DNA of 45,306 bases, from IMG/VR virus record IMGVR_UViG_3300005841_000045, positions 1 to 45,306 of that record, one strand, 5' to 3'. The stretch comes from a virus. This document shows positions 1 to 45,306 of the stretch, one piece after another (the first letter of the stretch is position 1; every line of letters begins with the position of its first letter). The position numbers were made by a program, and so were the translations under genes. The notes beneath the pieces were generated by a model that saw nothing but the letters and a program-made list of their open reading frames with translations, was not told the origin of the DNA and did no database searches.

Positions 1-155
1 GCAGGCACGGCTCGGCTGGGCCAGGCGGGGCAAGGCCAGGCATGGCAGGCAAGGCATGGCAGGCAAGGCTGGGCAGGGCTCGGCCAGGCGGAGCATGGCA
101 GGCGGGGCGAGGTAAGGCGTGGCGTGGCTGGGCCTGGCAAGGCGTAGCTAGGCAG
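1..155 (+). repeat. NNGGC pentamer array A (window start)
   Basis: The stretch reads as consecutive 5-nt units of two variable bases followed by GGC, all on the + strand, with occasional 4-nt units (usually AGGC) and rare substitutions in the GGC core. The units are not copies of each other; only the period and the GGC are conserved. The array ends about 12 bases before the GTG start of the VRR-NUC gene, so the ribosome-binding site of that gene (GGGGGAGA) abuts it. It matches in style the array at 44945-45306 that runs into the other end of the window, so the two are probably one array of about 520 bp in a circular molecule. Function unknown. Confidence 0.9.
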
Positions 156-5775: not shown

Positions 5776-5922
5776 TAACAACCAATACATGACGCATATG
5801 ACGGATATGACGCTGGTTTCCTGTTGTTATAGGTTTTTCTAGGTTTTTCGCGCGTATTAGGTGAAATAGCGTCATATCCGTCATATGCGTCATATCTAAT
5901 GTTATCAACACGTTGTCGGCAA
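5758..5922. repeat. nested inverted repeat with ATGACG iterons, candidate replication origin
   Basis: Three pairs of perfect complementary arms nest around one centre: 11 bp (5758-5768 with 5912-5922), 8 bp TGATAACA (5773-5780 with 5900-5907) and 26 bp (5789-5814 with 5868-5893). The 26-bp arm contains ATGACG three times at 9-bp spacing, so the element carries three iterons in each orientation. The 53-bp centre is AT-rich and has a direct repeat AGGTTTTTC. The outer arm begins inside the last codons of the primase gene. This is the expected build of an initiator-bound origin: oppositely oriented iterons around an unwinding element, beside the replicative primase-helicase. An alternative is a very stable terminator or cruciform. 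Confidence 0.75.
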
Positions 5923-8729: not shown

Positions 8730-9287
8730 GTGGTGGCGCGGCGCGTGCTAGCGACTGCGCTGCAGCAAGGCGGGCGCAGCGGGCGGCACCTGTTCAGCGA
8801 GGAGCTGTTCGAGGAGATCTGCGACCGGCTCGCTACGGGCGAGAGCTTGCGTGCGATCTGTCGCGATCCTCACATGCCCGATGAAAAGGCGGTGAGGAAA
8901 TGGGTGACTAAAGACGCCGCTGAGCTTGGTCCGCAATTCGCTCACGCGCGCGAGATGGGCTGTGAAAGCCTCGCTGAGGAGGTGATCGAGATCAGTGACC
9001 AACCGTGTCTTGGTCCTGATGGCTTTGTGGATAATGGGGCCGTTCAGCGCGCTCGACTGATGGCTGACAGTCGCAAGTGGTTTCTGTCGAAGCAGATGCC
9101 CAAGAAGTATGGTGACAAGGTCACCACGGAGGTCACCGGCGAGGATGGCGGGCCGTTGATCACGCGAATTGAGCTTGTTCCTGTTGCGGCGAGGCCCAGG
9201 CCTCAGATCGAGCACGACGACAGCGTTAACGGTAGCCCGGGGGAAGCCCGAACCCCAAAGGGAACAATAAAACGGCTGAAATCCTAG
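8730..9287 (+). CDS. terS: terminase small subunit
   Basis: 185 aa, GTG start. An N-terminal helix-turn-helix (GESLRAICRDPHMPDEKAVRKWV, residues about 37-60) is followed by a helical oligomerisation region and a disordered basic C-terminus, the layout of phage small terminase subunits that recognise the packaging site and load the large subunit. The segment WFLSKQMPKKYGDK is common in this family. Separated from the large subunit by five genes, which is unusual; the two normally adjoin. Confidence 0.85.
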   Translation: MVARRVLATALQQGGRSGRHLFSEELFEEICDRLATGESLRAICRDPHMPDEKAVRKWVTKDAAELGPQFAHAREMGCESLAEEVIEISDQPCLGPDGFVDNGAVQRARLMADSRKWFLSKQMPKKYGDKVTTEVTGEDGGPLITRIELVPVAARPRPQIEHDDSVNGSPGEARTPKGTIKRLKS

Positions 9288-43494: not shown

Positions 43495-43757
43495 CCGGCA
43501 GGGCAGGCGCGGCTTGGCGTGGGATGGCTTGGCTTGGCGGGGTGTGGCAGGGCAGGCCGGGCAGGGCCTGGCTCGGCCCGGCGCGGCGCGGCAGGGCCGG
43601 GAGTGGCAGGCATGGCTAGGCGCGGCGCGGCAGGGCCAGGCTCGGCTGGGCAGGCGGGGAGTGGCGTGGCTGGCCGAGGAGTGGCTCGGCTTGGCTCGGC
43701 GCGGCAGGCGCGGCCAGGCGCGGCTAGGCATGGCGAGACGCGGCAGGGCGTGGCGAC
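43495..43757 (+). repeat. NNGGC pentamer array B
   Basis: About fifty units of two variable bases plus GGC, always on the + strand. Phase is held even across units whose last C is changed (for example TGGGATGGC, GGGGTGTGGC), and 4-nt units such as AGGC shift it by one now and then. The array lies between a chain of very small genes and the operon at 43833, upstream of a stem-loop. Open frames run through it on both strands only because stop codons are rare in this composition. Confidence 0.9.
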
Positions 43758-43769
43758 TAATTGCGGAAA

Positions 43770-43802
43770 CTTCCGGCCCACCAGGCGGGGGTGGCCGGGA
43801 AG
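43770..43802 (+). other. stem-loop following array B
   Basis: CTTCCGGCCCACC and GGTGGCCGGGAAG face each other with two mismatches around a 7-nt loop, followed by a pyrimidine tract (TCTCTTTCTCTCC). It could end a transcript that reads through the array, or protect its 3' end, before the ribosome-binding site of the next gene. Confidence 0.5.
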
Positions 43803-43832
43803 TCTCTTTCTCTCCGCCCAAAGGATTACGGA

Positions 43833-44498
43833 ATGCCACTTGACGCGAACGCGCCACCGAGCACCGGCAAGGCCGCCACCGCCCGCGCTGTCGCAATTTC
43901 GCCGCCAAAGTTCGATCGCGCCGAGATCATGATTGTCGGCACAACTCCGTATGTGCAGCACAATTTTGCGGCTAAGGCGATTGCGCAAATTGCCGAGACG
44001 CAGCGCGAAGGAAGCCGATCTCGGAAGGGCAAGAAGCGCGAGGCCAGGGACTTCGAGGCCGATTGGCACGCCGCGATGCACATCTCCTCCGAAGGCTGGT
44101 GCGGCATCCCGGCGCCGGCCTTTAGAAATGCCCTGATCTCGGCCTGCCGCCTGGTCGGCTTCGCCATGACCCGGGCCAAGCTCTCGATCTTCATCGAGGC
44201 CGATGGCGTCGACCGCGATGGCTACACGCCGCTCGTCCGCATCATTGGCGACCCTGAGCCGCCGGGCGAACCGCAACCGGTGCGCAACGAAAGCGGCGTG
44301 GTTGACCTCCGCATGCGCCCGGTGTGGCTTCAGTGGCAGTGCCTACTCCGGCTGCGCTGGGACGCCGACCAGTTTAGCGCTGCTGATGTCCTGAACTTGC
44401 TCGCTCGTGCCGGCATGCAGGTGGGCATCGGCGAAGGGCGACCGGACAGTCCGAACAGTAATGGTCTGGGCAATGGATGTTGGGAGGTAGGTCGATGA
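43833..44498 (+). CDS. conserved phage protein with RAMP-like glycine-rich end
   Basis: 221 aa from ATG 43833 with AAGGA seven bases upstream. Core phrases: IVGTTPYVQHNFAAKA, HISSEGWCGIPAPAFRNALISAC, RAKLSIFIEADGVDRDGYTPLV, then VDLRMRPVWLQWQCLLRLRWD, and a C-terminal GIGEGRPDSPNSNGLGNG. The alternating strands and the last Gly-x-Gly...Gly-x-Gly loop resemble RAMP (Cas5/6/7-type) RNA-binding folds. I cannot confirm that without structure prediction. Similar proteins are widespread in phages without CRISPR. It stands between two pentamer arrays, which is the reason to look twice. Confidence 0.75.
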   Translation: MPLDANAPPSTGKAATARAVAISPPKFDRAEIMIVGTTPYVQHNFAAKAIAQIAETQREGSRSRKGKKREARDFEADWHAAMHISSEGWCGIPAPAFRNALISACRLVGFAMTRAKLSIFIEADGVDRDGYTPLVRIIGDPEPPGEPQPVRNESGVVDLRMRPVWLQWQCLLRLRWDADQFSAADVLNLLARAGMQVGIGEGRPDSPNSNGLGNGCWEVGR

Positions 44499-44935
44499 CA
44501 GTCGAGACTGAACTTCGCGGGTTGATGGACGAGGAAGGCTTCCTGAAGCCAAAGGAGATCATTGATTGGGCTCGCGCAAATACAGATAGTGAAATCTACA
44601 AACATCTGGAATGGAACGACGCAAAAGCCGCAGAAGCGCATCGGCTCGATCAGGTGCGCCGACTGATTGTCGTCTATCTCCGCGACGATAACGGTCAGCG
44701 CGAAACCATCAGCTTGATGCAGGATCGACGCGACGGGTCGGGCTACCGGAACCTGCGACCAGTCATGTCTAATCGCGAGCTGCGCCGGATGGCGCTGCGG
44801 CAAGCGCTGCGCGAATTGCGCAGTTTTGAGCGGCGATACAGACACCTGGAAGAACTGGCCGCGATTTTTGATGCCGCCAATAACATCGGCGCCGGGCTTG
44901 ATGACACCGGCGGCACTGCCGCCACTGCGGCGTAA
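44495..44935 (+). CDS. conserved phage partner protein
   Basis: 146 aa, ATGA overlap with the preceding gene. EEGFLKPKEIIDWARANTDSEIYKHLEWNDAKAAEAHRLDQVRRLI is a conserved-looking N-terminal half; the centre is beta-like (QRETISLMQDRRDGSGYRNL) and the C-terminus a helix (RQALRELRSFERRYRHLEELAAIFDA). Families like this accompany the preceding gene in other phages. The molecular role is unknown. It is followed directly by the third pentamer array. Confidence 0.7.
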   Translation: MTVETELRGLMDEEGFLKPKEIIDWARANTDSEIYKHLEWNDAKAAEAHRLDQVRRLIVVYLRDDNGQRETISLMQDRRDGSGYRNLRPVMSNRELRRMALRQALRELRSFERRYRHLEELAAIFDAANNIGAGLDDTGGTAATAA

Positions 44936-44944
44936 ACCACCTTT

Positions 44945-45306
44945 GGCATGGCGTGGCGGGCGCGGGATGGCGCGGGATGGCTCGGCAGGGCTCGGCATGG
45001 CCGGCAGGGCTTGGCGAGGCAGGGCAGGGCCAGGCCGGGCCTGGTGTGGCTCGGCGCGGAATGGCAGGCACGACGAGGCACGGCGAGGCAGGGCATGGCG
45101 CGGCGAGGCGAGGCAGGCATGGCTCGGCTGGGTGTGGCACGGCCTGGCTCGGCCCGGCAAGGCTGGGTGTGGCAGGCATGGCTCGGCTCGGTAGGGCGCC
45201 GACGCGGCACGGCCGGGCGCGGTAGGGCAGGCGTGGCGTGGCTTGGCCCGGCAGGGCGCGGCACGGCTCGGCTCGGCCGGGCAGGCGTGGCTAGGCCGGA
45301 CGTGGC
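44945..45306 (+). repeat. NNGGC pentamer array C (window end)
   Basis: About seventy units with the same rules as arrays A and B: two variable bases then GGC on the + strand, some units ending in A or T instead of C without loss of phase, 4-nt AGGC units in front of ATGGC or GTGGC. Phrases such as TGGCAGGCATGGCTCGG recur within it and in array B. It runs off the window end in unbroken phase-like order and probably continues as array A. Confidence 0.9.

What the first reader, a model, noticed from the sequence alone, without database searches (positions are those of the whole stretch)
43495..45306. Three arrays of a degenerate NNGGC pentamer, strand-biased, 5-nt phased
Seen directly: arrays at 43495-43757, 44945-45306 and 1-155 consist of 5-nt units in which GGC is fixed on the + strand and the first two bases vary. 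All sixteen dinucleotides occur across the arrays. Phase is mostly kept even where the last C is replaced. Units are not copies, so this is not an ordinary microsatellite; it is closer to a conserved frame with a free two-base payload. It is not a CRISPR array (no long repeats, no spacers). I know no described phage element with this build. Inference: it could be a protein-binding lattice, a structured RNA, a replication or packaging barrier, or a recombination site.
Basis: partly seen in the sequence, partly recalled or inferred. Interest (0 to 1): 0.88.

Follow-up and report, generated by a model that had tools for sequence, protein, structure and literature searches.

The report
Phage RNA-guide array (VIPR system)
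The odd NNGGC arrays are guide-RNA arrays of VIPR, a CRISPR-like system first reported in 2026 that phages use against rival phages; at least one guide in this phage reads out a conserved stretch of the DNA-packaging gene terS of other phages but mismatches its own copy.

Summary
The arrays are real: 34, 44 and 21 GGC pairs at lag 5, against shuffle maxima of 9, 10 and 6, on one strand only. They flank a two-gene cassette. Gene 43833-44498 (phrog_4652) is a RAMP/Cas7-fold protein homologous to PDB 36pp 'SUSP1 Vipr protein'; gene 44495-44935 (phrog_15946) sits where the accessory gene vap is expected. This is a VIPR system (Viral Interference Programmable Repeat; bioRxiv 2026.04.26.720920, PMC13142463). 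GGY is the scaffold, the NN dinucleotides are the guide, and DNA is read as (NNx)n with one base skipped per unit. The same cassette with same-strand arrays occurs in phages and prophages of Mycobacterium, Gordonia, cyanobacteria, Streptomyces, Sphingomonas and others. The array divides into 8-12-unit blocks, mostly separated by a 4-nt unit, usually GGCA. Decoding with the 1-nt-skip rule gave natural targets: block A2 matches terS of other phages 18/18 (0 of 3000 shuffles as good) but its own terS only 16/18. A relative (L016) carries a block matching this phage's terS 18/18 and its own only 15/18. Skipped bases fall on codon wobble positions. Observation confirmed; new member of a known, very recently described kind. 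Transcription, processing and interference were not tested.

The parts
43495..43757 (+). Array A: GGCNN units in five blocks separated by GGCA; predicted vrRNAs (guide RNAs)
43555..43599 (+). Guide block A2, units CG AG CT TC CC GC GC AG CG; read antisense with wobble skipped = R L A A G E/D S/R L R, the helix-turn-helix motif of the small terminase
   Evidence: pattern scan of IMG/VR, contexts, terS test 18/18 with 0 of 3000 shuffles as good
43833..44498 (+). vipr: RAMP/Cas7-like guide-RNA-binding protein (phrog_4652); ATG at 43833, upstream TTG alternative at 43761
44495..44935 (+). Putative vap (VIPR accessory protein), phrog_15946, overlapping the vipr stop by ATGA; mostly helical, only weak winged-helix resemblance
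44945..45306 (+). Array B: GGCNN blocks B1-B6 and the start of B7, mostly separated by GGCA (GGCG and GGCC at the first two boundaries)
45003..45062 (+). Guide block B2 (12 units); antisense decoding resembles the small-terminase motif T-R-x-W-L-L-S-K-L (suggestive only)
   Evidence: 15/18 against a terS gene, 68 of 3000 shuffles as good
45116..45170 (+). Guide block B4 (11 units); antisense decoding fits the small-terminase motif Y/F-G-D-x-V-T-Q-E-I
   Evidence: 16/18 against the terS gene of L160, 7 of 3000 shuffles as good
1..155 (+). Continuation of array B across the record ends (probable); ends just before the next gene (VRR-NUC/RusA-like nuclease, 167-562)
   Evidence: L016 has vipr-vap-array-recE in the same order
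8730..9287 (+). terS, small terminase (phrog_1482; Pfam Sf6_terminase): the window's own copy of the targeted gene
8825..8851 (-). Own-terS site homologous to the A2 target: only 16/18, i.e. spared self site
9158..9184 (-). Site in this phage's terS matched 18/18 by a guide block of the related phage L016 (L016's own terS: 15/18)

Best explanation
The locus is a phage VIPR system. The GGCNN arrays are transcribed with the flanking genes' sense into RNA in which each GGC(NN) pentamer is taken up by one Vipr (RAMP) subunit. GGY is the protein-bound scaffold and each NN pairs with DNA; one target base opposite each GGY is skipped, so a guide of n units reads a 3n-bp dsDNA site as (NNx)n. Bound DNA is silenced, helped by the accessory protein encoded next to vipr. 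Here the guides are packed head to tail without the 3' tail known from SUSP1, in blocks of 8-12 units separated mostly by a 4-nt GGCA unit; a block is probably one guide. At least one block (A2), very likely B4 and possibly B2, is directed at the small-terminase gene of competing phages; skipping the wobble base makes it read a conserved protein motif, while the phage's own terS carries mismatches. Shown here: array statistics, Vipr homology and fold, cassette conservation, target matches with controls. Inferred: transcription, processing at GGCA, RNP formation, silencing.
For: Vipr profile hits PDB 36pp 'SUSP1 Vipr protein', E 2e-10; the Felixounavirus homologue hits it at 2e-128. The AlphaFold model (pLDDT 86) matches only CRISPR RAMPs in its top 50 PDB hits. 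In 67 relatives and reference phages (L009-L075) a strict GGC-lag-5 test finds arrays on the coding strand in 46 and on the other strand in 1; more degenerate G[GT][CT]NN arrays occur in many of the rest. vap lies beside vipr in 62 of 67. Published mechanism: PMC13142463. Target evidence: L016 block vs this phage's terS 18/18, L016's own terS 15/18. Window block A2: 7 exact hits in IMG/VR, 4 of them terS genes (two distinct sequences), against 1 non-terS hit for the same units in reverse order; 18/18 in terS, 0 of 3000 shuffles; skip 0, 2 and 3 give at most 14/16. Sphingomonas prophage block L080 hits nine rival vipr genes 16/16, own vipr 13/16.
Against: No RNA or functional data for this phage. 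The SUSP1-type 3' tail was not found, so block = guide is inferred. Three of five scanned window blocks gave no exact IMG/VR hit (B2, B4, B6) and the two C3 hits look like chance. Of 14 blocks tested on terS, two to three stand out; targets of the rest are unknown. In the held set as a whole the excess for the 1-nt skip is modest and partly non-independent. The putative vap is not detectably homologous to the SUSP1 accessory protein.
Confidence: 0.94

Rival explanations
1. A TRAP-like RNA lattice: a ring or filament protein binds GGC triplets spaced by 2-nt linkers, and the linkers carry no information.
For: Triplet plus 2-nt spacer and 8-12 units per block resemble TRAP sites (from general knowledge); Vipr is a RAMP-fold protein.
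Against: The dinucleotides are informative: A2 in its real order matches terS 18/18, no shuffle does, and the self copy is mismatched; L080 dinucleotides match nine rival vipr genes.
Confidence: 0.03
2. Replication origin or iteron lattice, packaging or recombination site acting as DNA.
For: Neighbouring genes include primase/helicase, RecE and a RusA/VRR-NUC nuclease.
Against: Arrays follow vipr-vap into very different contexts: next to the immunity repressor and excisionase, tail genes, DNA ligase, always in the coding sense of vipr; unit content differs strongly between UmaThurman and Pipp although the genes are close.
Confidence: 0.02
3. Low-complexity or repeat-expansion product without function, or a translated repeat peptide.
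For: GGCNN is open in several frames, and some arrays are annotated as small ORFs.
Against: 4-nt units shift the frame repeatedly; units are not copies; 0 of 1000 shuffles reach the periodicity; conserved with one gene pair across distant phages.
Confidence: 0.01

Closest known systems
VIPR systems (PMC13142463), e.g. Escherichia phage SUSP1 / Felixounavirus
   Same: vipr RAMP gene, neighbouring small accessory gene, noncoding GGY/NN pentamer tracts in the gene sense, 1-nt-skip decoding, targets in rival mobile elements
   Different: Here the guides form one continuous tail-less array in blocks separated mostly by GGCA; in SUSP1/Alf5 each guide is a separate ~100-nt RNA with a structured 3' tail (and the paper). 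The accessory protein (phrog_15946) is not detectably homologous to the Felixounavirus one. Observed target gene: terS. [quoted passage not shown] S18, not readable here), which may be this layout.
Class 1 CRISPR-Cas (type III Csm3/Cas7)
   Same: RAMP fold; guide RNA carried by a protein filament; periodic non-pairing of bases
   Different: No cas operon, no repeat-spacer array, no adaptation genes; 5-nt rather than 6-nt period and non-contiguous pairing
TIGR-Tas
   Same: Phage-encoded guide-RNA array with one main protein (from general knowledge and the abstract)
   Different: Different protein (Tas) and different array; not compared by sequence here

Membership tests
VIPR | Vipr protein: minimal RAMP with RRM core, G-loop, thumb | tested here: met
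   hmmsearch to 36pp E 2e-10; Foldseek top hits all CRISPR RAMPs; conserved GxGxGEGRP loop. The thumb was not examined separately.
VIPR | Noncoding tracts of GGY/NN pentamers flanking vipr, same sense | tested here: met
VIPR | 9-16 repeats per vrRNA | tested here: inconclusive
   Window blocks hold mostly 8-12 units and 316 clean blocks in the set 7-13, mode 9; the true RNA ends are unknown
VIPR | Invariable structured 3' tail after the repeat tract (SUSP1 clade) | tested here: not met
   Blocks follow each other directly with only a 4-nt unit between; the paper says array architectures vary between types, so this feature is not defining for all VIPR
VIPR | 1-nt-skip target recognition with natural targets in rival mobile elements | tested here: met
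   (sequence evidence only)
VIPR | Accessory vap gene next to vipr | tested here: inconclusive
   Conserved neighbour in 62 of 67 loci; weak winged-helix similarity only, no detectable homology to the Felixounavirus accessory protein
VIPR | vrRNA expression, co-purification with Vipr, transcriptional repression | not testable with these tools
   needs wet-lab work
CRISPR-Cas array | Near-identical direct repeats separated by unique spacers | tested here: not met
   Only low-identity period-5 families were found in the arrays; no Rfam match in the window

The most novel reading that the evidence does not exclude
Tail-less, GGCA-separated VIPR arrays form a distinct guide architecture in which several guides converge on one essential gene (terS) of competitors at protein-motif level, with reciprocal targeting between related phages and built-in self-sparing mismatches; processing would occur at GGCA boundaries.
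Probability: 0.4. Interest if true: 0.72.

Novelty: new member of a known kind. Interest (0 to 1): 0.62.

Why it matters
VIPR is proposed as the root of CRISPR effectors and is described so far in one preprint. This phage gives an independent case found from raw sequence. It supports the 1-nt-skip code with controls on data the authors did not report in the text read here, names a concrete natural target (terS), and shows self/non-self discrimination between related phages that carry guides against terS. It also shows what to look for elsewhere: long GGCNN arrays next to phrog_4652, currently annotated as hypothetical genes or left blank in many actinobacteriophages.

Tried and rejected
Rfam on the window and nine relatives: nothing, so no Rfam hammerhead was seen in those. 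tRNA: none. Pfam on both genes: nothing significant. The hit of the vap profile to the TAL effector Hax3 was set aside as a repeat-inflated match to a short motif. Exact IMG/VR scans of window blocks B2 (10 units), B4 and B6 (9 units each): no hits; C3: two hits without a convincing context. Self-targets in the window genome: no block reaches a perfect match; only A2 (16/18, terS) and weakly A4 exceed shuffles. The L100 to L020 18/18 match extends no further than 9 of 12 units and was not counted as evidence. Any exact A2 match translates antisense to RLAAG[ED][SR]LR by construction, so hits L107, L108 and L110 (not shown to be terS) were not counted. In one search the printed codon position for antisense frames is off by one phase, because the 26-base match lacks the final skipped base; the wobble assignment was rechecked by reading the codons and. 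Assignment to one of the seven published VIPR types was not possible because the supplement is not readable here.

Full report
Observation. GGC is the main but not the only triplet. The phase steps back by one base at 4-nt units. Across the window and its relatives these are overwhelmingly GGCA (623 of the 4-nt units; the next most common type counts 30), and they divide the arrays into blocks; 316 clean blocks hold 7-13 units, most often 9, and 83% begin with GGC. The unit before GGCA often ends in AA or AT. In the window two of the 4-nt boundaries are GGCG and GGCC. Arrays B and 1-155 are probably one array across the record ends. A relative (L016) has vipr, vap, a single 594-base array and then recE in the same order, but the near-identical contig L015 continues 8 bases differently, so the exact join is open.

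Context. Between the arrays lie two genes: 43833-44498, a member of phrog_4652, and 44495-44935, a member of phrog_15946. A blastn search with the region hit Cyanophage Cy-LDV1, Mycobacterium cluster F phages and Gordonia phages, and in each of those inspected a GGCNN array sits beside the same two gene families, in the orders array-A-B, A-array-B or A-array-B-array. A profile search of IMG/VR gave 61 more loci and of GTDB genomes 25 (Sphingomonas, Mesorhizobium, Streptomyces, Microbacterium and others). A strict GGC test on the 67 loci L009-L075 finds arrays on the coding strand of gene A in 46 and on the opposite strand in one; AT-richer relatives carry G[GT][CT]NN variants. Gene B is a neighbour in 62 of 67.

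Identity. A profile of gene A matches PDB entry 36pp, 'SUSP1 Vipr protein' (E 2e-10), and the Felixounavirus homologue is nearly identical to it. The AlphaFold model (pLDDT 86) finds only CRISPR RAMPs, mostly Csm3, among its 50 best PDB matches. The preprint PMC13142463 (bioRxiv 2026.04.26.720920) describes VIPR: a Vipr RAMP, an accessory gene and vrRNAs of 9-16 YNNGG repeats whose NN dinucleotides pair with double-stranded DNA while one target base per repeat is skipped, used mainly against competing phages and able to silence genes. The window fits this in gene pair, array unit, array strand and phage setting. Differences: no 3' tail between blocks, and an accessory protein without detectable homology to the Felixounavirus one.

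Targets. I tested the published code on these arrays. Scanning 1012 nine-unit guides from the held loci against 1.8 Mb gave 18/18 matches only for the 1-nt skip in real order (2, against 0 in all eleven control settings). A whole-block test gave 25 matches with at most 2 mismatches for the 1-nt skip against 4-9 for the controls, but several of these are repeated hits on homologous vipr genes. One of the 18/18 matches is informative: a complete block of L016, whose Vipr is 79% identical to this one, matches this phage's terS at 9158-9184 (minus) 18/18, while L016's own terS, 79% identical to the window's TerS over 141 residues, matches 15/18 at the homologous site; the skipped bases are wobble positions. 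Conversely, window block A2 read antisense codon by codon is R-L-A-A-G-E/D-S/R-L-R, the helix-turn-helix motif of small terminases. Its (NNx)9 pattern has seven exact hits in IMG/VR; four are terS genes (L104, and L105/L106/L109 with the same protein), whereas the same units in reversed order have one hit, not shown to be terS. The window's own terS matches 16/18. Against 82 terS genes, A2 scores 18/18 (0 of 3000 shuffled orders as good), B4 16/18 (7 of 3000; peptide YGDKVTQEI) and B2 15/18 (68 of 3000; TRKWLLSKL), all antisense with wobble skipped; the remaining blocks show nothing. [quoted passage not shown]

Mechanism. Most likely the array RNA is bound by a Vipr filament, one subunit per pentamer, and cut or bounded at GGCA so that a block is one guide; the RNP binds rival terS and silences it, with own terS spared by mismatches. 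Identity, cassette conservation and target matches are shown; transcription, processing and silencing are inferred from the preprint. The role of GGCA is my inference.

Verdict. It is a new member of the VIPR kind, described months ago, with a continuous tail-less array and terS as a decoded target.

Noticed in passing
L065:6620-7090, L067:6640-7190, L069:6600-7060: Divergent relatives whose arrays consist of ~65-75-nt repeats with a constant part (ATGAAAAGTTT...ATTTGCC) and a variable part in which G (or C) recurs every fifth base; their accessory gene is fused to a winged-helix DNA-binding domain (PF00486).
   Followed up: partly
L080:7075-7114: Sphingomonas soli prophage guide block matching the vipr genes of nine other loci 16/16 (motif EDMVRVGM), own vipr 13/16: guide against rival VIPR systems.
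   Followed up: partly
L033:6673: Guide block that near-matches (at most 2 mismatches) vipr genes of several relatives at the motif RVKYDADQFT.
   Followed up: no
L016:2913-2957 and a second similar block in the same array: Two near-identical guide blocks differing in two dinucleotides, as if covering two alleles of one terS site.
   Followed up: no
L010:3986-4372, L013:3986-4144: GGCNN arrays annotated as small hypothetical genes in Mycobacterium phages (Donkeykong 48, ByChance 39), probably mis-called ORFs across guide arrays.
   Followed up: no
L011:3920-4243 versus L012:4001-4270: Gordonia phages UmaThurman and Pipp have closely similar vipr proteins but largely different arrays: fast guide turnover.
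   Followed up: no
window 5789-5896: Short 9-nt direct repeats (ATGACGCAT, CGTCATATC) in the gap after the primase gene, where G+C drops to about 0.52; possibly iteron-like.
   Followed up: no
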